Shown here: positions 1 through 20,795 of the stretch, one piece after another
Layout: every line of letters starts with the position of its first letter
Numbering within the stretch: the stretch's first letter is position 1
Source of the DNA: a virus
Length of the DNA: 24,258 bases
IMG/VR virus record: IMGVR_UViG_3300026518_000438
Location: 1-24,258 of that record
Strand: one strand, 5' to 3'
The notes under the pieces: model-generated
Databases searched by the model: none
Seen by the model: the letters and a program-made list of their open reading frames with translations, nothing else
What the model was told of the DNA's origin: nothing
Position numbers and translations under genes: made by a program

Positions 1-1176
1 TCCCAAGCTGTACGTGCTTTATCCAGATCCAAGGCTGGCAAGCGAAAAATCTCGCCCAAAAGCAACACCGGGAAAATCCTTGATTGGATCGGGGACAGGT
101 TACCACAGGATTCCGATCTGCTTACTATCGGCGAGAGTCTGGTCGTCCAATCCGCCCTCAGATGGTTCGTCAATCCGGTGAGGAGATATGTCGATGGCAC
201 ACCGGGTCGGTATCGGCAGTTCCGCCGCTTGCGCCAGACGGAAAATCGCTGGTTCAGCCAAAAGGATTTCAACCGCTCCGACCTACACCCGATTGAAGTC
301 GACGCGATTTTGCTGGCCATGCTGCAAATCTCAGACGAGATCGTCACTGGCCCCCGTATCCTGAGCGATTCCGAAGGTCCTGTCCAAGCCATCGTGGAAA
401 GAATGGAAGGCCTGTATCAAACACAGGTTCTCGTCGACGAGGTCACAGATTTTTCACCTTTGCAGCTGGCCTGCATGGCAAAGTTGGCTCGCCCCGGCAT
501 TCGTTCGTTTTTCGCCTGCGGTGATTTCAATCAACGCGTAACGAGTTGGGGGACCCGAACACAAACGGATATGGATTGGGCACTTCCGAAAATTCAAACT
601 CGGGAAATAACAGTCGCATACCGCCAAACTCGCAATCTCCATAATTTCGCCCGGAAAATCGTCGAGGTATCCGGCGAGACTTCTGCTGAAGTAATTCTCC
701 CCGAATATGCAGAAAATGAAGGGGTGCCGCCGCTTTTGGCTGTCGGCATGGATAATTTGGAGCGCACGTCCAAATGGCTGGGAGAGCGGATCAAGGAAAT
801 CGAGCGATCCCTGCACGATCTGCCTTCCATCGCCATCTTGGTTAATTCGGAAGCTGAAGTTCTGCCCGTCGCCGAACACCTTGGTGGAGTATTGTCCGAT
901 TTGAACATTCGGGTTGTTCCATGCCCCAATGGGCAAGTACGGGGAAATGAAAGTGAAGTCAGGGTATTTTCTGTCGAGCACATCAAGGGGCTCGAATTCG
1001 AGGCAGTTTTCTTCGTCGGTCTGGATCGTCTAGCCGAACAACATCCGGATCTATTCGACAAATATCTGTACGTCGGTGCGACACGTGCAGCCACATATCT
1101 CGGGTTGACGTGCGAGACCGATTTTCCGGAACCCATGACGGGTCTGGCAGATATGTTTGGTGACTGCTGGGCGTAA
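1..1176 (+). CDS. SF1 UvrD/HelD-like helicase, 3' part (open at left edge)
   Basis: The reading frame is open from base 1 through the TAA at 1174-1176 (391 codons), so this is the C-terminal part of a larger gene whose start and Walker A motif lie outside the window. Superfamily 1A motifs appear in order: a Walker-B-like VLVDEVTDF at codons 143-151 (DEVTD in place of the usual DExQD), motif III FACGDFNQ near 171-178, motif IV VAYRQTRNL near 205-213, motif V VEHIKGLEFEAVF near 325-337 and motif VI YVGATRA near 357-363. The family unwinds nucleic acid or strips protein from it by ATP hydrolysis. The segment RYRQFRRLRQTENRW ahead of motif II recalls HelD-like or phage-defence UvrD relatives. Its neighbours are a convergent Fic gene and a QueC-like operon. 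The helicase class is well supported; a defence role is inference from context. Confidence 0.85.
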   Translation, partial: SQAVRALSRSKAGKRKISPKSNTGKILDWIGDRLPQDSDLLTIGESLVVQSALRWFVNPVRRYVDGTPGRYRQFRRLRQTENRWFSQKDFNRSDLHPIEVDAILLAMLQISDEIVTGPRILSDSEGPVQAIVERMEGLYQTQVLVDEVTDFSPLQLACMAKLARPGIRSFFACGDFNQRVTSWGTRTQTDMDWALPKIQTREITVAYRQTRNLHNFARKIVEVSGETSAEVILPEYAENEGVPPLLAVGMDNLERTSKWLGERIKEIERSLHDLPSIAILVNSEAEVLPVAEHLGGVLSDLNIRVVPCPNGQVRGNESEVRVFSVEHIKGLEFEAVFFVGLDRLAEQHPDLFDKYLYVGATRAATYLGLTCETDFPEPMTGLADMFGDCWA

Positions 1177-2610: not shown

Positions 2611-3396
2611 ATGGGTCATCAACGCCTTGGCAAGCTCCCAGCCTATCGCAATCTGCCGGATATCGTCAGGTATCTGGTGACAGGTGGTACGCCAACCGCC
2701 AACCTGGTTGAGCAAGTGACTGAAGTTGGTCAGGATTCTCTCAAGCGCGCGCTGAAGGATCCGGTGTTTGTCGAAGCGCTGTGGTTGCTTATTCAGTTGC
2801 CACAAGCAGCTGCCTCCAAGGATTTTGCGGCCGCACTCGCCGATATCGGCATGGGAGCGCAGGCGCCGGCGTCAATACCGGAACTCATGGTCGCCTATGA
2901 CAAAGCCCTCGAACGTGTCCAACGCCGATTGCATGCCGACGCGACAGATTTAGGCGAAATCTCCCGAAGAGCCGCTCTCGCCGCGCTTGGAAATGCCGTT
3001 CAATCTGGCATGCCATTGTGGTCTCCGACGCCTGCCGATGTCCAAGCTTCGGTCGCCGCGTTGAGGTCTCCGGAAAAATTTGGGGCGCTTGCGCATCAGT
3101 TTCATGCGAACTTCGTCGAGCGTGTGATCCACTACTATGTGGACCGAAACCTTCACAAGATCGTGGGCGCCGACAGGGTCGCACGGTCTGTGTACGATCT
3201 TGAAACCCATGATGCTGCGATACGTCGTCACTGCAGCGAGGCGGCGCTGATCATGCGCGCCTTCGCCAGGGACTGGCTCGGCAAGAATGTTTACCGAGAC
3301 GGCAAGGAAATCAGGAGAGAGGACGCGCGCCGTTTCTCGGCTTATGCCGCGAAAAAGATCGGGATCGAATTGGAAAAAAGAAAGGGGCCGAATTGA
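2611..3396 (+). CDS. Unrecognised 261-residue protein, first gene of the QueC-like operon
   Basis: I do not recognise this protein. It is soluble-looking and largely alpha-helical, with no signal peptide, membrane segment, Walker motif or cysteine cluster. Residues about 1-100 are hydrophobic-patterned helices (LPAYRNLPDIVRYLVTGG at the start). The C-terminal third is basic and contains HANFVERVIHYYVDRNL and RRFSAYAAKKIGIELEKRK. It starts at ATG 2611 with a weak GGTGA element 4 nt upstream. Its TGA overlaps the TTG start of the QueC-like gene by 4 nt (TTGA at 3393-3396), so the two are almost certainly co-translated and probably act together. It does not look like QatB of the Qat defence system as I remember it (that protein begins with a Gly/Pro-rich stretch absent here). 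Coding status is well supported by the coupling; function is unknown. Confidence 0.8.
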   Translation: MGHQRLGKLPAYRNLPDIVRYLVTGGTPTANLVEQVTEVGQDSLKRALKDPVFVEALWLLIQLPQAAASKDFAAALADIGMGAQAPASIPELMVAYDKALERVQRRLHADATDLGEISRRAALAALGNAVQSGMPLWSPTPADVQASVAALRSPEKFGALAHQFHANFVERVIHYYVDRNLHKIVGADRVARSVYDLETHDAAIRRHCSEAALIMRAFARDWLGKNVYRDGKEIRREDARRFSAYAAKKIGIELEKRKGPN

Positions 3397-5246
3397 AACA
3401 GTACGTGATTGAATGCGGTGTTGCGGTTCCCTCTGATAGCAACGCCATTGCTATGAATGTGGCTGATCCCGGCAAGAACGTGAATCTGCGGATCGATTAC
3501 ATCAGCAGGTCAATGCTCGGGAATGTTCCCGAGCTTCTGATCGACCTGCTCGAAGTGGCGGCTTACGTCTATTGTGCGGATCAACGCCTTACTCGAGGTT
3601 CCCCGAAATTGACGAACTTCGGACAAGACTGGCGGCGAAGCCTGAGCTTCACGATTCCGGTTCGATATCCGGAGGTTTGGCAAAGCCCAACTGTAACGGA
3701 AACACTTGCCGAAACGCTTGGTTTCCTGTCCGACGACAGCTACGAATTCAATTTTCGCCGGGCCGAGGGGCCGTTTCAGCCGCGCGAGCTGTATTTCCCC
3801 GAGCTTATCGATGCATCGCAGGAATCGGACGAAGTGGCCCTGTTCTCCGGCGGTGTTGATTCCTTTGCCGGTGCTCTCAACGACATTGTCACATTGGAAA
3901 AATCAGTCACGCTGGTCGGGCACCATTCATCGTCGAAAGTCCGGAACACTCAGGAAGCTTTGATTCAGGAACTGAAGAAGCGCGGATTCGCACGCCGCGT
4001 TTCCTACGTCCCCGTATGGGTCTCCAACGAAAACGCACGCGCGGCAGAATACACCCAGCGTACGCGCTCGTTCCTGTTTGCCAGTCTTGGGCTGGTTGTT
4101 GCGCAGATGTCAGGCAAGAGCCGGTTCAGTTTCTATGAAAACGGCGTTGTCAGCATCAACCCACCGCTGGCAGGCGACGTTATTGGTGGCCGCGCCACCC
4201 GTACCACACACCCGAGGGTGCTTCGGGGCTTCGAGGCACTTTTTTCGGAGCTTCTTGATTGTCAGATCGAGATCCAGACCCCTCTTCAGTGGTTGACCAA
4301 AATGGAGGTCACTCGGAAGATCGCAGAAGCAGGCATGGCAGACATGCTTTCCTCGACCGTAAGCTGTACGAGGACGCGAGAAATGACGGCAAAGCAGAAG
4401 CATTGCGGGCTTTGTTCGCAATGCATCGACAGACGCTTTGCTGTCCTCGCCGCCGGTCTGGGCGAATACGAACCCTCCGAAAACTACAAGCGAGATCTCC
4501 TGCTCGGGGATCGGAGCGCCGACGACAATCTGCGCATGGCGCTGAGTTACGTTTCATTTTTTCGCAAGATTGGCGCGATGTCGAAGGAGCGATTCCTCGT
4601 GGATCTTCCCGAAGTCGTCTCGGCGCTGGACAATTATCACGGCCTATCTGCCGATGAGGCCGCATCCAGGCTCTTTGACCTGCTCCAACGGCAAGCACGC
4701 TCGGTGGAAAAAGTCATCACCGAGGCCGTCCAGGAACATGCGGACCGACTGTACAATGGTACGGTTCCGCCCGGATCACTTCTTGCAGCCTGTTTCAACC
4801 GAGAACGCGTCGAGATCGCGCCACCGTCCGATTATGACCGAGAGGCCCGGGCGCTGATGGATCGGATCAATGCGCAATTCATCGATTTCGCCATGGATGA
4901 CAATGCCGAGCGGGTGCTTTTTCATGGTGGCCATTATCTTGAGGGAGCGAACTATCGCTTCGTTAAGCAGCTTGTCGACGAATTCAGAAACGCCAAGAAG
5001 AAGCGATTGGAGATCCAGTTTTTGCCTGCCTACAAGCTGGCCGACCGGTTGAATGTGACTGAACAGTCAGTGCGCCAGCAGTTGCGCCGACTGCGCGATG
5101 CGCTTGAACCGCTGGTGGTAACGCTCGGCATCCCCCTCGATCAGGACAGTTTTATCGAGACCAGGGAGCGTGCCGGCTACCGCTTGAATCCGGCCTGCCG
5201 CGAAATTTCGGTGGGCGACATCCGGGATCCGTACCCGGGTACGTAA
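3393..5246 (+). CDS. QueC-like ATP-pyrophosphatase with C-terminal helix-turn-helix (candidate defence protein)
   Basis: This 617-residue protein starts at TTG 3393, coupled to the preceding stop, with a purine-rich AAAGAAAGGGG just upstream. The PP-loop SGGVDS is at residues 152-157. A QueC-type zinc site follows: C325, then C338, C341 and C344 in CGLCSQC. QueC uses ATP to turn 7-carboxy-7-deazaguanine into the nitrile preQ0. Classic QueC is about 230 residues, so this protein carries about 140 extra N-terminal residues and about 270 extra C-terminal ones. The C-terminal part includes an HTH/winged-helix-like segment (LADRLNVTEQSVRQQLRRLR, then GYRLNP near 595). No queD, queE or queF is nearby. 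QueC-like proteins are known in Qat and type IV CBASS immunity, so a defence role is likely, but no Qat ATPase, TatD or CBASS cyclase is visible here. An intrinsic terminator follows. Confidence 0.85.
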   Translation: MKQYVIECGVAVPSDSNAIAMNVADPGKNVNLRIDYISRSMLGNVPELLIDLLEVAAYVYCADQRLTRGSPKLTNFGQDWRRSLSFTIPVRYPEVWQSPTVTETLAETLGFLSDDSYEFNFRRAEGPFQPRELYFPELIDASQESDEVALFSGGVDSFAGALNDIVTLEKSVTLVGHHSSSKVRNTQEALIQELKKRGFARRVSYVPVWVSNENARAAEYTQRTRSFLFASLGLVVAQMSGKSRFSFYENGVVSINPPLAGDVIGGRATRTTHPRVLRGFEALFSELLDCQIEIQTPLQWLTKMEVTRKIAEAGMADMLSSTVSCTRTREMTAKQKHCGLCSQCIDRRFAVLAAGLGEYEPSENYKRDLLLGDRSADDNLRMALSYVSFFRKIGAMSKERFLVDLPEVVSALDNYHGLSADEAASRLFDLLQRQARSVEKVITEAVQEHADRLYNGTVPPGSLLAACFNRERVEIAPPSDYDREARALMDRINAQFIDFAMDDNAERVLFHGGHYLEGANYRFVKQLVDEFRNAKKKRLEIQFLPAYKLADRLNVTEQSVRQQLRRLRDALEPLVVTLGIPLDQDSFIETRERAGYRLNPACREISVGDIRDPYPGT

Positions 5247-5458
5247 CAGTGGCAAACTGGCCATGTCACGGACCACCACGCCCAATGTCACAAGAAGCCT
5301 GTTGAAGCCCCGTTTTTTGGGGCTTTTTTCATGTCCGGGTGTCACAAGAAAATCCGGGCGTGATCATATACTTATGCGCGCAATGCATTGAAATTGTTCG
5401 CATATCTTGGCGCATCGACGTGCCGGGGTGAACCGCGAACAACTCAATGGAGTTTCCA
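5247..5458 (+). promoter_or_regulatory. Intergenic junction between the accessory block and phage early genes
   Basis: No gene is seen in these 212 bp. They hold the terminator and an 11-bp direct repeat TGTCACAAGAA at 5286-5296 and 5340-5350, with a shorter TGTCAC at 5264. They also contain a near-consensus -10-like TATACT at 5367-5372 (without a convincing -35) and the palindrome AATGCATT. A perfect palindrome GTACCCGGGTAC sits just inside the preceding gene end at 5231-5242. A promoter for the early operon must lie here or be read through from upstream. An attachment site is possible but there is no integrase in the window to support it. Confidence 0.4.
5305..5329 (+). terminator. Intrinsic terminator after the QueC-like gene
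   Basis: A stem AAGCCCC/GGGGCTT (arms 5305-5311 and 5319-5325) with a T-rich 7-nt loop runs directly into a T tract (TTTTTT at 5324-5329). It lies 58 bp after the QueC-like stop and ends the operon before the phage early genes. The opposite strand lacks a T tract, so the + direction is favoured. Confidence 0.85.
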
Positions 5459-5668
5459 ATGACAGTCACGCATTTGAACCAGACCGAACTGGCGGCACGC
5501 TGGAAGGTCAGCCCGCGCACGCTCGAGCGCTGGCGCTGGACGGGCGAGGGGCCCGCCTTCATCAAGATCGGCGGCCGGGTCGTGTACCGCCTCGAGGATA
5601 TCGAGGCCTATGAGGAACGGCGGCAATGCGCCAGCACCGCTGACAAGCCCTGCGCAAGGCTGGCGTGA
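5459..5668 (+). CDS. AlpA/excisionase-like helix-turn-helix protein
   Basis: This is a 69-residue protein. I choose ATG 5459 over the in-frame ATG at 5447 because GGAG at 5449-5452 lies 6 nt upstream of it. The body is a MerR/AlpA-type HTH: LNQTELAARWKVSPRTLERWRWTGEGP, then a wing FIKIGGRVVYRLEDIEAYE. This is the form of phage excisionases and AlpA-like activators. It is the first gene of the phage early operon, and its stop overlaps alternative start codons of the next gene (GTGATG). It probably binds DNA as an excisionase or early regulator. Which of the two cannot be told, because neither an integrase nor an attachment site is identified. Confidence 0.85.
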   Translation: MTVTHLNQTELAARWKVSPRTLERWRWTGEGPAFIKIGGRVVYRLEDIEAYEERRQCASTADKPCARLA

Positions 5669-5679
5669 TGGGGGTGCAG

Positions 5680-6165
5680 ATGACGATTTCCAACCGCACC
5701 ACCCTTGACGATCTGCGCCGGATGCAGGTCCGCGACATTGCCGCCTTGCCGGGCGAACATCTGGCCCTGCTGCAAGATGAGGCGGCCGAGCAACTACGCG
5801 CGGCTAGGACGCTTGCCGAGTGGCTCGACGGGGCCATTGCCCTGAAATACGCCGAGCGCGCGCGAGCTGCGCGTCGGGCCGAGGGCAAGGACACAGGCAC
5901 CGTCCGTTTTCGCGACGGCGCGGTCACCATTGTCGCCGATCTGCCGAAAAGGGTGGATTGGGACCAAACGATGCTTGCCCGGATCAGGGACAACATCGCC
6001 GCAGCCGGCGATGACCCTTCCGAGTTCATCGACACCACGCTGAAGGTGTCCGAGCGCAAGTTTGCAGCGCTGCCCGAGTCCTGGCGCAAGGGGTTCGAGC
6101 CCGCCCGCACCGTGCGCACCGGCAGGCCGAAATTCCGCCTGAATCTGGACGAGGAGGCGCGCTGA
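5680..6165 (+). CDS. Hypothetical phage early protein
   Basis: This protein has 161 residues from ATG 5680, with GGGGG at 5670-5674 as ribosome-binding site; GTG 5665 and ATG 5668 are alternatives. The N-terminal half is helical and charged (RTTLDDLRRMQVRDIAALPGEHL, then a coiled-coil-like AEQLRAARTLAEWLDGAIALKYAERARAARR). The second half contains RFRDGAVTIVADLPKRVDWDQ and ends in a basic-acidic tail. No catalytic motif is evident. It directly precedes, with a 1-nt overlap, the AAA_24 ATPase, and proteins of this shape recur at this position in alphaproteobacterial prophages. A role with the recombinase is plausible but unproven. Confidence 0.75.
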   Translation: MTISNRTTLDDLRRMQVRDIAALPGEHLALLQDEAAEQLRAARTLAEWLDGAIALKYAERARAARRAEGKDTGTVRFRDGAVTIVADLPKRVDWDQTMLARIRDNIAAAGDDPSEFIDTTLKVSERKFAALPESWRKGFEPARTVRTGRPKFRLNLDEEAR

Positions 6166-6911
6166 TGGCCATCTCTCTTGCATCCCTGCGCAGCACGACC
6201 GCGCTTCAGCCGCCGCGCATCCTGATCCACGGCGTGGCGGGCATCGGCAAGTCAACCTTTGCCGCGTCCTCGGAGAGGCCGGTGTTCATCCTCACCGAGG
6301 ACGGGCTCGGCAGGCTCCAGGTGCCGCATTTCCCGCTGGCGGCGAGCTTCGCGGAGGTGGCAGAGGCGCTCGACGCACTGCTGGACGAGCAGCATGACTA
6401 TTCCACTGTTGTCGTGGACAGTGTCGACTGGCTGGAGCCGCTGATCTGGGCCGAGACCTGCACGCGCAATGGCTGGCAGTCGATCGAAAGCCCGGGCTTC
6501 GGCAAGGGCTATGCCGAGGCGCTGAATGTCTGGCGCGAATACATCGACAAGCTCAATGCCCTGCGCACCCGGAAGGGCATGGCGGTCATCCAGATCGCGC
6601 ATACTGACATCAGGCGTTTCGACAGCCCCGAGCACGAGCCCTACGACCGCTATGTGATCAAGCTGCAGGCTCGGGCGTCCGCATTGCTGCAGGAACATTC
6701 CGACGTGGTGCTGTTCGCCAACTACCAGATCTCGGTGAGCAAGTCCGACGTCGGCTTCAACAAGAAGGTCACCCGCGCGCTGAGTTCGGGCGCGCGTGTC
6801 ATGCATACCGAGGAACGCCCGGCCTTCCTCGCCAAGAACCGGTACGGCCTGCCGCAGACCCTGCCGCTCGAGTGGTCGGAGTTCATCGCGGCTATGCCGA
6901 AAGCCGATTGA
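6165..6911 (+). CDS. AAA_24 / Sak4-like RecA-fold phage ATPase
   Basis: This protein has 248 residues. Walker A GVAGIGKST spans residues 23-31 and the Walker B strand TVVVDSVDW spans 81-89 with D85. A sensor-like QIAHTD lies near 143-148. This is the AAA_24 family (PF13479 as I recall), which includes the Sak4 group of phage single-strand-annealing RecA-like proteins. ATG 6165 overlaps the preceding stop by one base. Its neighbours support a recombination set: DUF669 (SSB-like candidate), a Cas4-like nuclease and a DEAH helicase follow. The expected role is ATP-dependent DNA binding or annealing during phage replication and recombination. Family assignment is firm; the annealase role is inferred from relatives. 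Confidence 0.88.
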   Translation: MAISLASLRSTTALQPPRILIHGVAGIGKSTFAASSERPVFILTEDGLGRLQVPHFPLAASFAEVAEALDALLDEQHDYSTVVVDSVDWLEPLIWAETCTRNGWQSIESPGFGKGYAEALNVWREYIDKLNALRTRKGMAVIQIAHTDIRRFDSPEHEPYDRYVIKLQARASALLQEHSDVVLFANYQISVSKSDVGFNKKVTRALSSGARVMHTEERPAFLAKNRYGLPQTLPLEWSEFIAAMPKAD

Positions 6912-15189: not shown

Positions 15190-16251
15190 TCACGGCAGAG
15201 TGTACCAGGTCGTCCGGCCGCCACCATGCATGACGAGGTGCCCCTTGTCGACCAGCTGGCGAAACTGCTGCTTCAGCGTGTTCCGGCTGGCGCCGGTCAG
15301 CTTGATCATGTCGCCCATGCTTACCCTGCCGTGCTCGCGGGCGTGATCCAGGATCCGAAGAGACAGCTCCGGCAGGGTTGACAGCAGGATCTTCTCGCGC
15401 TCGATCTTCTTCGCGAGCCGATTCGTCTGTTGTTGCATCGCGCGCAGGAAGAATATCAGCCATGGCTGCCAGTTGGGCGCGTCGCCACGGATCGTTCCCT
15501 GCGTCTGTCGGAGGGCGAGGTAATAGCCTTCCTTGCTCTGTTCGATCACGCTTTCCAGCGAGCTGTAGGGCACATAGGCATATCCGGCCTGCAGCAGAAG
15601 CAGCGTCGTGAGGATCCGGCTCAGCCGTCCGTTCCCGTCCTGGAATGGATGAATTTCAAGGAACACGACGGTGAACACAGCGATCACCAGAAGCGGATGC
15701 AGTCGTCGTTGCTCGCGCTCCGATGCAAGCCAGCCGACAAGCTCGGCCATCAGTCGTGGTGTATCAAAAGGCGTCGCCGTCTCGAAGACGATACCAATCT
15801 GCTTGCCGTCTTCGTCAAAGGCGGCAACGCTGTTCGATGAGGTCTTGTAATTGCCGCGATGCCACGCATCCTTCTCGCTGTAGACGAGCAGGTCGCGGTG
15901 CAGCTGCTTGATGTGATTTTCGGTGACGGGGATGTCTTCCCAGGAACGGAACACGAGTTCCATCGCCTCGGCATAGCCGGCCACTTCCTGCTCGTCACGT
16001 GTGGCGAAGGATTTGATTTCGAGATTGGCAAGCAGCCGTTCGACATCGCGGTCGGACAGCTTGCTGCCCTCGATGCGGGTCGACGATCCGATGCTTTCGA
16101 TGGTGGCAACCCGGCGCAGAGCGGAAAGGCGTTCGGGCGCGAGCGTTCCCAGTGCACGCCAGGCGCCCTTGAACTCGTCGATCTCGGCGATCAGCGAGAG
16201 CAGTTCCGGGGTGATCAGGATCGTGTCGGTGTTGAGCGGGTTCTCAGTCAT
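15190..16251 (-). CDS. Second Fic family protein with self-inhibitory motif and winged-helix C-terminus
   Basis: This is a 353-residue protein from ATG 16251 (a TTG at 16257 is the only longer option). The Fic motif HPFQDGNGRLSR is at residues 201-212. The class II inhibitory helix S-x3-E-G spans S57 to G62 (STRIEG), which normally blocks gamma-phosphate binding. The N-terminus (about 1-50) is a helical Fic_N-like region. The C-terminus (LRILDHAREHGRVSMGDMIKLTGASRNTLKQQFRQLVDKGHL, read across about 295-340) is a winged helix. It lies against the direction of the phage operon, and the base composition is less GC-rich than its neighbours, so it is probably an acquired cargo gene. It shares architecture but little sequence with the Fic protein at 1276. 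Repeats and a TATAAT box sit right at its start. Confidence 0.93.
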   Translation of the reverse strand: MTENPLNTDTILITPELLSLIAEIDEFKGAWRALGTLAPERLSALRRVATIESIGSSTRIEGSKLSDRDVERLLANLEIKSFATRDEQEVAGYAEAMELVFRSWEDIPVTENHIKQLHRDLLVYSEKDAWHRGNYKTSSNSVAAFDEDGKQIGIVFETATPFDTPRLMAELVGWLASEREQRRLHPLLVIAVFTVVFLEIHPFQDGNGRLSRILTTLLLLQAGYAYVPYSSLESVIEQSKEGYYLALRQTQGTIRGDAPNWQPWLIFFLRAMQQQTNRLAKKIEREKILLSTLPELSLRILDHAREHGRVSMGDMIKLTGASRNTLKQQFRQLVDKGHLVMHGGGRTTWYTLP

Positions 16252-16315
16252 GCCCAATTATACACCCAATTACACCCAATTACGCAACCCAAATCGGCAC
16301 CCATTTGCACCCAAA
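16252..16315 (-). promoter_or_regulatory. Tandem TTGGG(T) repeats and TATAAT box at the Fic start
   Basis: On + the motif CCCAA occurs at 16253, 16265, 16275, 16288 and 16310, with a variant CCCATTT at 16300, at 10-13 bp spacing. On minus this reads as repeated TAATTGGGTG-like units running into the ATG. A perfect TATAAT lies at 16262-16257, only 5 nt before the start codon, with TTGCGT 19 nt upstream as a possible -35. No Shine-Dalgarno is visible. The arrangement suggests a leaderless transcript overlapped by operator repeats. Confidence 0.55.
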
Positions 16316-18899: not shown

Positions 18900-19126
18900 A
18901 ACAGAGCCGCACCATGTCTCTGGTCGAGGCCATCACCAACGTGGTCGTGGGTTATGGAATCGCGGTGGTGACGCAGATCCTGATCTTTCCGGTCTTCGGG
19001 CTGCATACGACACTGGTGCAGAACCTGAAGATGGGTGCCATTTTCTCTGGGGTCAGCATCGCAAGGTCGTTCGCCCTGCGGCGGCTGTTCGAGGCGATCA
19101 GGATGCGGTCGATCCGGTCTAAATAA
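18896..19126 (+). CDS. DUF7220-like small membrane protein
   Basis: This is a 76-residue protein with ATG 18896 overlapping the methyltransferase stop (ATGA). It has two hydrophobic segments: residues about 10-34 (AITNVVVGYGIAVVTQILIFPVFG) and about 43-60 (LKMGAIFSGVSIARSFAL). It ends in a basic tail (RRLFEAIRMRSIRSK). The opening QSRTMSLVEAITNVVVGYG matches what I recall as DUF7220, a small protein frequent in alphaproteobacterial prophages next to Dcm genes. It probably sits in the inner membrane with a cytoplasmic basic end. Function is unknown. Its last 8 bp overlap the convergent PIN toxin gene. Confidence 0.85.
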   Translation: MKQSRTMSLVEAITNVVVGYGIAVVTQILIFPVFGLHTTLVQNLKMGAIFSGVSIARSFALRRLFEAIRMRSIRSK

Positions 19127-19694
19127 ACGCCTGATGCTGGCGCGCACGCGCCGCAAGCTTCGGAAGCCCCTTCGCCGTGAGGTCGAGGATGAATTCAGGC
19201 GCCGTATAGGGGGGATTCCTGTAATGCGCGCGCAATTCCCGCAGGACAGCGAGTGCCTCGGACGGGTAGAGGTCGAAAGTCCGCGAGAGAAATTCGTCGG
19301 CATCAATTGCTTCGATGTCGTACTGCTCCAGCACTTCGATCGGAAAGTCGGCAAGGTTGTCGGTCACGATGTGCTGGGCGCCGCATTTTATGGCGGCAGC
19401 GAGAACATGCCGGTCATCTGCATCGGGCAGATCAAGAGACGCGACCAGAGGCTCGTACCCTGTGACCAGCGCTTCGGGGAAATGCGCCTGCATGGCTTGC
19501 AATTGGGCGCGGATGCTTTCTTCGAGCTGCGGCTTCAGCGCAAGAAGATTGCGCGACCATTCGTCAAGGATCTGCTCGGACCATCGCGCACGGAACAGGC
19601 CGGCATGGTAGAACCGCAAGAGAACGTCCCGCTTCCTGAAAGGAAACAGGACGTTCGCGTCGAGGAGGACGACAAAGCGGTCGGCGACGTGCAT
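19119..19694 (-). CDS. PIN-domain toxin (VapC-like ribonuclease)
   Basis: This is a 191-residue protein. I use ATG 19694, which overlaps the antitoxin TGA by one base (TGATG); a TTG one codon earlier is the only longer start. PIN-domain acidic residues are in place: D12 in VVLLDANVLFPF, E45 in SEQILDEW, D93/D94 in LPDADDRHVLAAAI and D112 in VTDNLADFP. The family cleaves RNA, often tRNA or rRNA, in a Mg-dependent way. It is longer than classic VapC (about 130 residues), having an extra C-terminal helical part (about 140-191). It is transcribed with the HTH antitoxin upstream and antisense to the phage operon, which fits a stabilising or anti-superinfection cargo. Confidence 0.9.
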   Translation of the reverse strand: MHVADRFVVLLDANVLFPFRKRDVLLRFYHAGLFRARWSEQILDEWSRNLLALKPQLEESIRAQLQAMQAHFPEALVTGYEPLVASLDLPDADDRHVLAAAIKCGAQHIVTDNLADFPIEVLEQYDIEAIDADEFLSRTFDLYPSEALAVLRELRAHYRNPPYTAPEFILDLTAKGLPKLAARARQHQAFI

Positions 19695-20149
19695 CAAGAG
19701 GCATCGAACTCCTGTCCAAGCCGGGCAAGCTCGTCGAGCGCAGCATTGCGCGCGGCGTCACGGCGCTCCTTGTAGGCCATCAGGTCCGCATGCATGACGC
19801 GCCGATGCGAGCCCACCGGGATGAACGGGATTTCGCCTTCTTTCAGCAGCTTGCTGAGATAGGGGCGCGACACGTTCAGGATGTCGGCGGCCTGTTGGGT
19901 GGTGAGCATGGCGCCGGTCGGAATGATCGTGACCATGTCGCCGCGGGCCACATGGCCCAGCAAGTCGATCATCAACTCGGCGATAGCGGGTGCCAGCCGA
20001 ACGGGTTCGCCGCCGTCTCCGTGGATGATCAACGCCCCTTCTTCGGTGCGCGCATTCGCCAACGCAGTCGCGGCTTCTGCGGCGCTTGCGATTTCCTCTT
20101 GCGTCGGAAGACGGCGCGTCAGGTCAATCACTTCGGCAGTGTTGTCCAT
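19694..20149 (-). CDS. HTH (excisionase-fold) antitoxin of the PIN toxin
   Basis: This is a 151-residue protein from ATG 20149, with GAGG about 7 nt upstream; the longer frame to 20350 runs through the promoter region and is rejected. The C-terminal part has a MerR/excisionase-type HTH: LTTQQAADILNVSRPYLSKLL at residues 82-102, then a wing IPFIPVGSHRRVMHADLMAY. The N-terminal 80 residues are helical and acidic, followed by a beta-like EGALIIHGDGGEPVRLAPAI. It is coupled to the PIN gene by TGATG. It should repress its own promoter through the direct repeats upstream and neutralise the PIN toxin. The arrangement is typical of HTH-PIN pairs in Proteobacteria. Confidence 0.88.
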   Translation of the reverse strand: MDNTAEVIDLTRRLPTQEEIASAAEAATALANARTEEGALIIHGDGGEPVRLAPAIAELMIDLLGHVARGDMVTIIPTGAMLTTQQAADILNVSRPYLSKLLKEGEIPFIPVGSHRRVMHADLMAYKERRDAARNAALDELARLGQEFDAS

Positions 20150-20209
20150 GGTTGATCCTCCGTTTCGCGTGTTCCCAAGGTTCAGGTAGCAATTGGGCGC
20201 CCCTGTTAC

Positions 20210-20245
20210 AAGTGAAATAAGTGAAACAAACGAAAAAAGTGTAAA
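20210..20245 (-). promoter_or_regulatory. AAGTGAAA direct repeats upstream of the antitoxin
   Basis: AAGTGAAA occurs at 20210-20217 and again at 20219-20226 (9-bp step), with a related AAGTGTAAA at 20237-20245. The stretch is AT-rich and lies 60-95 bp before the antitoxin ATG at 20149. On minus it reads TTTCACTT repeated. It probably holds the toxin-antitoxin promoter and the operator for autoregulation. The rest of 20150-20285 holds no gene. Confidence 0.5.
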
Positions 20246-20285
20246 GGAAGTGCCTGCTGCGAAACGGCGGGCCAGCCGCCAGGGG

Positions 20286-20795
20286 TCACGAGGCGATCCG
20301 GTAAACCCTCCCTCTTTCGCCCTCCTTCTCGGAGACAACCTCGAGGCCAAGCCTTTTCTTCAACACCCCGGATATCGCCCCGCGCACGCTGTGCGGTTGC
20401 CAACCGGTAGCGGCAACGATCTCGGGAATGGTTGCGCCGCCCTCGGCCCGGAGCATCTCGATCAGGATCTCCTGCTTGCTGCCCTTGGGGCGCTGAACCG
20501 GCGCGGGCCCAGCGGGCGCGGTGTCCTCAGGCTCGTCCGTGATGCCGAGCACCTGATGGGCCAGCTTGGTGGCGCGCAGGGTGATGGGCCCGCGTTCTTC
20601 GTCATGCCGCCAGACGGTGTTGAGGTCGCTTGCCCTGATTTCCTCGACCAGCCCGCGCTTGAGCAGGCTTTTCAGGCAATTGCCGACGGGCCCGCCCTTG
20701 AGGTGCGGTGGTGTCGGGAACACGAGGGCGTCCTCGCGGGCGCAGGCGGTCGAAAGGATGACGGCCTGGGTGTCGGAAAGCTCGATCTGGATCAT
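20286..20795 (-). CDS. DUF3489 domain protein (probable DNA-binding regulator)
   Basis: This protein has 169 residues from ATG 20795, with CGGAG about 8 nt upstream. The N-terminal half (LSDTQAVILSTACAREDALVFP, then NCLKSLLKRGLVEEI) resembles a winged-helix domain. A Pro/Ala linker spans about 88-105. The C-terminal DUF3489 domain (about 106-167: KQEILIEMLRAEGGATIPEIVAATGWQPHSVRGAISGVLKKRLG read in pieces, then RGRVYRIAS) is a second winged helix. DUF3489 proteins are common in alphaproteobacterial prophages and plasmids; function is not established. It is transcribed away from the terminase genes, and a 17-bp palindrome lies immediately before its start. That position suggests it controls itself and possibly the late genes. 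Confidence 0.88.
   Translation of the reverse strand: MIQIELSDTQAVILSTACAREDALVFPTPPHLKGGPVGNCLKSLLKRGLVEEIRASDLNTVWRHDEERGPITLRATKLAHQVLGITDEPEDTAPAGPAPVQRPKGSKQEILIEMLRAEGGATIPEIVAATGWQPHSVRGAISGVLKKRLGLEVVSEKEGERGRVYRIAS

What the first reader, a model, noticed from the sequence alone, without database searches (positions are those of the whole stretch)
2611..5246. Coupled two-gene unit: unknown 261-aa protein plus oversized QueC-like enzyme with a DNA-binding tail
Sequence shows a QueC PP-loop (SGGVDS) and four-cysteine zinc site in a 617-residue protein that is far larger than QueC and ends in an HTH. It is co-translated (4-nt overlap) with a protein I cannot place. No queuosine genes are near. 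QueC homologues act in Qat and type IV CBASS immunity, where the known partners differ from what is seen here. With an adjacent SF1 helicase and a Fic gene, this may be an undescribed defence system using deazaguanine-type chemistry.
Basis: partly seen in the sequence, partly recalled or inferred. Interest (0 to 1): 0.78.

Follow-up and report, generated by a model that had tools for sequence, protein, structure and literature searches.

The report
Phage-carried two-gene relative of Qat defence
A temperate phage of alphaproteobacteria carries a stripped-down, far-diverged version of the core pair (QatB and QatC) of the Qat bacterial immune system, with a DNA-binding domain fused on and an invariant protein start (Met-Gly-His-x-Arg-Leu-Gly) that probably receives a chemical tag, which gives a natural two-gene test bed for what Qat enzymes do.

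Summary
ORFs 2611-3396 (261 aa, "B") and 3393-5246 (617 aa, "C") overlap by 4 nt, and C has SGGVDS and a four-cysteine zinc site. B's AlphaFold model matches P. aeruginosa QatB (Z 12.5 over 209 residues; best non-QatB Z 4.7), with a supporting profile match. C residues 2-474 match full-length QatC (Z 30.9); its extra size includes an OmpR/PhoB-like winged helix.

The pair is a diverged QatBC unit lacking QatA and QatD. C was beside B wherever the contig allowed (56 of 58 loci). B's N-terminus, MGHxRLG, is its most conserved stretch, where canonical QatB has MGTS; the two types form separate clades (99/99). Alphaproteobacterial copies sit mostly in prophages, beside varied defence genes. A Leptospira pair carries a DpnII/MboI nuclease domain instead of the winged helix. 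Six of 14 hosts lack detectable QueC, QueD and QueE, so carboxydeazaguanine may not be C's substrate.

Likeliest function: C ligates a small molecule to Gly2 of B, arming a DNA-directed anti-phage complex. Homology and context are shown; chemistry and defence are inferred. New variant of a known kind.

The parts
2611..3396 (+). B: QatB-fold protein, 261 aa, all-helical
   Evidence: VIA Z 12.5 to 9y01_A QatB, 209 aligned, rmsd 3.7, 12% id; hhalign to QatB profile, prob 88.9, P 2.4e-6
2611..2631 (+). N-terminal MGHQRLG motif; Gly2 is the predicted modification site
   Evidence: M1, G2, H3, L6, G7 invariant in 14 diverse B; most conserved 7-residue window of 255; all four Gly codons used at position 2, so selection is on the protein
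3393..5246 (+). C: QatC-like enzyme with C-terminal winged helix, 617 aa, TTG start overlapping the B stop
3396..4814 (+). C residues 2-474: full-length QatC homology, including its N- and C-terminal extensions
   Evidence: Z 30.9 to 9y02_B, 403 aligned, model 2-474 to chain 2-457, 25% id
3846..3863 (+). SGGVDS ATP-pyrophosphate loop, C152-157
4197..4214 (+). TRTTHP motif, C269-274; T269 and T271 align with QatC T278 and T280
   Evidence: alignment; (PMC13279940) for the role of T278/T280
4365..4424 (+). Zinc site C325, C338, C341, C344: Cx12CGxCxxCxxRR
4881..5192 (+). C-terminal OmpR/PhoB-like winged helix, about C497-600, ending in wing motif GYRLNP
   Evidence: strands 499-517, helices 519-536, 546-552, 557-578; hhalign to Trans_reg_C domains, prob 90.3, P 1.8e-7; single-sequence Pfam hits below cut-off

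Best explanation
This is a phage-borne minimal QatBC-type immunity pair. B is the QatB-fold partner: its initiator Met is removed to expose Gly2, and its conserved N-terminus (GHxRLGxLP) enters C's active site. C is a QatC-type ATP pyrophosphatase that adenylates a small carboxylate and ligates it to the B N-terminus. The small molecule is unknown and, in many hosts, probably not carboxydeazaguanine. The modified BC complex acts on or senses DNA through the domain fused to C: an OmpR/PhoB-like winged helix in alphaproteobacteria, a DpnII/MboI-type nuclease domain in Leptospira. The prophage carries it near its integrase as cargo against competing phages. Shown: the homology, invariant motifs, strict pairing, absence of QatA/QatD and prophage defence-slot location. 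Inferred: Met removal, N-terminal modification, the DNA-directed output and the anti-phage role.
For: Folds: B = QatB (Z 12.5; all unrelated chains 4.7 or less; profile match); C = QatC. C keeps QatC catalytic features: SGGxDS, RxRxxxF, ENG, the invariant TRTTHP, PLxWxTK and CGxCxxCxxRR. Published: QatBC alone suffices for defence against some phages, QatB Gly2 and QatC active-site residues are essential, and T278/T280 replace the residues that read deazaguanine (PMC13279940). B's MGHxRLG is invariant even in Leptospira, where the whole protein is 19-21% identical. Strict pairing with the same 4-nt overlap. QatA and QatD give no hit in any MGH-type locus, while the same search finds one or both beside all six canonical controls. 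Prophage setting: phage markers in 51 of 58 loci, serine recombinase in 28. The neighbouring slot holds PD-T7-1 and Lit, PDC-S68, a DpdF homologue, McrBC, and type III and PglX methylases, and AbiEii or ImmA/IrrE genes in sister phages. Among related phages the pair is optional. Leptospira C ends in a DpnII-MboI domain, E 1.2e-10, above cut-off.
Against: No experiment. B's pre-helix N-terminus is about 9 residues, whereas QatB's tail is mostly 30-90, so B's N-terminus must reach the active site differently. The motif is MGHxRLG, not MGTS. C falls below the QatC equivalog cut-off (213 against 280 bits). The winged helix also suits a regulator, and the pair lies where phages keep lysogeny-control genes. 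The Leptospira example is a single locus. The AlphaFold model of C is weak past residue 577 (pLDDT under 50), and no complex could be modelled.
Confidence: 0.6

Rival explanations
1. The pair is a lysogeny or transcription switch of the phage: C binds phage or host promoters through its OmpR/PhoB-like domain, and QatC-like chemistry on B is the signal input.
For: C ends in a DNA-binding domain; the pair lies between integrase and replication genes; sister phages keep ImmA/IrrE-type regulatory genes in that region.
Against: The pair is absent from most related phages with enough sequence to show it, so it is not the lineage's core switch; Leptospira has a nuclease domain at the same place; homologues of both subunits are defence proteins (PMC13279940).
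Confidence: 0.2
2. A new multi-gene system made of Fic, SF1 helicase, B and C.
For: Fic is next to B in 21 of 58 loci and divergently oriented.
Against: Fic is absent from most loci; a Fic 81% identical sits beside a B only 32% identical; the helicase position is filled by unrelated genes elsewhere.
Confidence: 0.05
3. C makes a 7-deazaguanine base for DNA or tRNA modification, as QueC does.
For: QueC superfamily membership (Pfam QueC 34.7 bits, above cut-off).
Against: The deazaguanine-reading Tyr/Asp are replaced by the QatC Thr pair; QatC failed to complement a queC mutant in published work (PMC13329287); the constant partner is QatB-like; six hosts lack detectable QueC, QueD and QueE.
Confidence: 0.04
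4. The pair performs Cap9-type deazaguanylation of B with carboxydeazaguanine specifically (a sub-case of the best explanation, with the substrate fixed).
For: Cap9 attaches carboxydeazaguanine to an N-terminal Gly of its partner (PMC13279940, PMC11996544); B has an invariant Gly2.
Against: C has the QatC Thr pair, not Cap9's Tyr/Asp. Six of 14 hosts, four of them isolate genomes with an intact C, show no canonical QueC, QueD or QueE; three more MGH-type hosts and three canonical Qat hosts lack QueC and QueD.
Confidence: 0.15

Closest known systems
QatBC core of qatABCD (P. aeruginosa 9y01/9y02, E. coli)
   Same: Same folds for both subunits; same gene order with B before C; SGGxDS, Thr pair, zinc site, N- and C-terminal extensions; N-terminal Met-Gly on B
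   Different: No QatA or QatD; MGHxRLG in place of MGTS; N-terminal tail about 9 residues in place of mostly 30-90; extra C-terminal winged helix (or nuclease domain in Leptospira); separate clade (99/99); carried mostly by prophages
Type IV CBASS Cap9 and its CD-NTase
   Same: QueC-family enzyme paired with a partner protein that begins Met-Gly
   Different: Partner is QatB-like, not a CD-NTase; Cap9 is about 185 aa and keeps the deazaguanine-reading Tyr/Asp; Cap10 was not seen among the neighbours examined
[quoted passage not shown]
   Same: PP-loop Rossmann core and zinc site
   Different: 617 against about 222 aa; substrate-reading residues replaced; no QueC-pathway neighbours seen
OmpR/PhoB (Trans_reg_C) DNA-binding domain
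   Same: Strand-helix layout and GYRL wing of C497-600; profile match prob 90.3
   Different: Single-sequence Pfam scores below cut-off; fused to an enzyme, no receiver domain

Membership tests
qatABCD (Qat) system | QatC-type enzyme: QueC core with SGGxDS, Thr pair, zinc site and both extensions | tested here: met
   (Z 30.9 over residues 2-474)
qatABCD (Qat) system | QatC equivalog score at or above NCBIfam cut-off (280 bits) | tested here: not met
   213.2 bits
qatABCD (Qat) system | QatB-fold partner encoded directly upstream | tested here: met
   (Z 12.5; helical folds need caution below about 13, but the next unrelated chain is 4.7) and profile match
qatABCD (Qat) system | QatB N-terminal MGTS on a disordered tail of 30-90 residues | tested here: not met
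   MGHxRLG and about 9 residues before helix 1; Met-Gly itself is kept
qatABCD (Qat) system | QatA (KAP ATPase) and QatD (TatD nuclease) in the operon | tested here: not met
   No tblastn hit in any MGH-type locus; QatD hits in all six canonical control loci and QatA in five
qatABCD (Qat) system | Anti-phage activity dependent on B Gly2 and C active site | not testable with these tools
   Needs plaque assays
Type IV CBASS | CD-NTase partner | tested here: not met
   B has the QatB fold; no CD-NTase family hit for B in Pfam or PADLOC
QueC (preQ0 synthase) | Canonical QueC equivalog score | tested here: not met
   TIGR00364 24.4 bits against cut-off 150.3
QueC (preQ0 synthase) | QueD/QueE neighbours | not tested
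   Only QueC (PF06508) was searched in the window, with one match, C itself; no such neighbour was noticed among the annotated window genes
OmpR/PhoB-type winged helix (C-terminal domain) | Trans_reg_C homology over the whole domain | tested here: inconclusive
   hhalign prob 90.3, P 1.8e-7 over 105 columns; hmmscan 12-17 bits against cut-off 26.2

The most novel reading that the evidence does not exclude
A separate phage-borne family of two-gene QatBC immune pairs (MGH type) with fused DNA-acting output domains, in which the C enzyme attaches a molecule other than carboxydeazaguanine to the N-terminal glycine of B: an undescribed protein modification that works in hosts unable to make deazaguanines.
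Probability: 0.35. Interest if true: 0.85.

Novelty: new variant of a known kind. Interest (0 to 1): 0.62.

Why it matters
The QatBC paper leaves open which reaction QatC performs and how QatB modification stops phage (PMC13279940). This family bears on both. Nature has dispensed with QatA and QatD here, so the pair is a minimal unit to reconstitute. The fused winged helix or nuclease domain points to DNA as the place of action. Hosts without detectable QueC, QueD and QueE argue that carboxydeazaguanine is not the universal substrate, which can be tested directly in E. coli que deletion strains. It also shows temperate phages carrying a Qat-type pair.

Tried and rejected
Fic and SF1 helicase as fixed parts: rejected. 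PreQ0 synthesis: rejected. B by sequence alone: no hit in Pfam, PADLOC, NCBIfam, PHROGs or PDB sequences at useful E-values; only the predicted fold and profile comparison placed it. Relatives in the phage record collection: none for B; the two Listeria hits for C are short QatC-like proteins. Leptospira B in viral contigs: nothing. Winged helix against PDB sequences: weak response-regulator hits only. First tree missed most canonical QatC rows through a faulty pattern and was redone. QueD negatives are weak taken alone, because two hosts with a queC-queE pair also gave no QueD match, so the joint absence of QueC, QueD and QueE is what is used. The Rubellimicrobium copy of C is frameshifted and is not counted as intact. 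Two family searches failed on mis-set coordinates and were repeated without those entries. Other QatC relatives on Arthrobacter, Calothrix and Rhodococcus plasmids proved to be ordinary QatA-B-C-D operons.

Full report
Observation. The two ORFs, the 4-nt TTGA overlap, SGGVDS and the four cysteines are as stated. C scores with QatC (PADLOC 1.2e-56; NCBIfam 213 bits, cut-off 280), and only weakly with canonical QueC. B has no family match.

Relatives. Scans gave 26 alphaproteobacterial and 25 viral loci for B, extended by a profile scan. C lies immediately downstream wherever the contig allows (56 of 58), with the same 4-nt overlap in nearly every locus read. Genome searches added distant pairs (B 28-41% identical), and a Leptospira noguchii plasmid carries one at 19-21% identity in B and 28% in C.

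What B is. An AlphaFold model from 35 relatives (mean pLDDT 79.7) aligns with P. aeruginosa QatB at Z 12.5 over 209 residues; among 997 chains only the two QatB entries exceed Z 5. Foldseek alone ranked QatB with probability 0.99 but E 0.32, so the fold match rests on the second aligner and on a profile-profile match (prob 88.9, P 2.4e-6).

What C is. Residues 2-474 align with complete QatC (Z 30.9, 403 residues); Cap9 and QueC score 13. The Thr pair that distinguishes QatC from Cap9/QueC (T278, T280; PMC13279940) is T269, T271 here. Residues about 497-600 form an OmpR/PhoB-like winged helix by predicted topology and profile match (prob 90.3, P 1.8e-7; control against an unrelated profile 0.2), although single-sequence scores stay below cut-off. 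In Leptospira the same position holds a REase_DpnII-MboI domain (1.2e-10, 41.5 bits, cut-off 27).

The N-terminus. M1, G2, H3, L6 and G7 are invariant across 14 diverse B proteins, and the first seven residues are the most conserved 7-residue window of 255. All four glycine codons occur at position 2, so the constraint is on the protein. Alpha and Leptospira B agree at 10 of the first 20 positions and at 0-7 per 20 elsewhere. Canonical QatB begins MGTS (PMC13279940), and its Gly2 is needed for defence. By tree, C of MGH-type pairs and QatC of MGTS-type pairs are separate clades (99/99).

Setting. Phage replication, packaging or integration genes lie near 51 of 58 loci; the window itself has Sak4, Cas4-type exonuclease, helicase, primase and a large terminase. 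In the simplest arrangement the order is serine recombinase, DUF2924, B, C, replication genes. Left of the pair is a variable region with known or candidate defence genes. Related phages mostly lack the pair and hold other genes there, so it is cargo. Broken copies exist: L026 (B cut at 205 aa, C fragment inverted), L005 (C frameshift), L174 (C short). QatA and QatD were found at none of these loci.

Substrate. Of 14 host genomes searched, six had no canonical QueC, QueD or QueE: Rubellimicrobium thermophilum (its C is frameshifted), a Sedimentitalea MAG, Aquamicrobium defluvii, Roseisalinus antarcticus, Antarctobacter heliothermus and Seohaeicola saemankumensis. Three further MGH-type hosts and three canonical Qat hosts lacked QueC and QueD. 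Draft genomes and imperfect QueD recall limit this, but it fits the published remark that QatC may use another substrate (PMC13279940).

Mechanism and confidence. Shown: homology, motif conservation, pairing, gene context. Inferred: removal of Met1, ATP-dependent ligation to Gly2 (about 0.6), anti-phage role (about 0.65), winged helix as a DNA-directed sensor or output (about 0.4). B's short N-terminus is the main structural difficulty.

Verdict. Not an unknown system, but a distinct, apparently undescribed branch of the QatBC kind. No paper in the held library holds both 'QatC' and 'winged helix', and the two 2026 QueC/QatC papers do not mention this branch in the sections read; subscription papers and preprints were not searchable.

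Noticed in passing
L066:4373-5557 and 5535-6476; L104:4136-5368 and 5355-6290: Sister phages lacking BC carry a different overlapping gene pair (about 395-411 and 312-314 aa, first protein with ..FLRKTP.. or ..FFRKTP.. near its start) in the same slot, with no Pfam or PADLOC match; candidate unknown module.
   Followed up: partly
window 15190-16257 (minus): A second Fic-like gene (355 aa, HPFQDGNGR) in the same phage, besides the one at 1276-2556.
   Followed up: no
window 19119-19697 and 19694-20350 (minus): Overlapping genes that look like a PIN-type toxin (192 aa) and an excisionase-like DNA-binding antitoxin; by eye only.
   Followed up: no
window 1-1176: C-terminal part of a UvrD/HelD-like SF1 helicase cut by the contig end; PADLOC similarity to NERD+UvrD and GajB, so possibly another defence gene.
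   Followed up: partly
L010:3189-6597 (minus): Lit-like gene beside two PD-T7-1-like genes next to Fic and BC: a compact defence cluster in a prophage.
   Followed up: partly
L056:3384-5335, L059:3169-5326: Two further far-diverged QatC-like enzymes on Bosea and Bradyrhizobium plasmids, with different upstream partners (Bradyrhizobium partner starts MGSGSFGGG; Bosea partner starts MSDG).
   Followed up: partly
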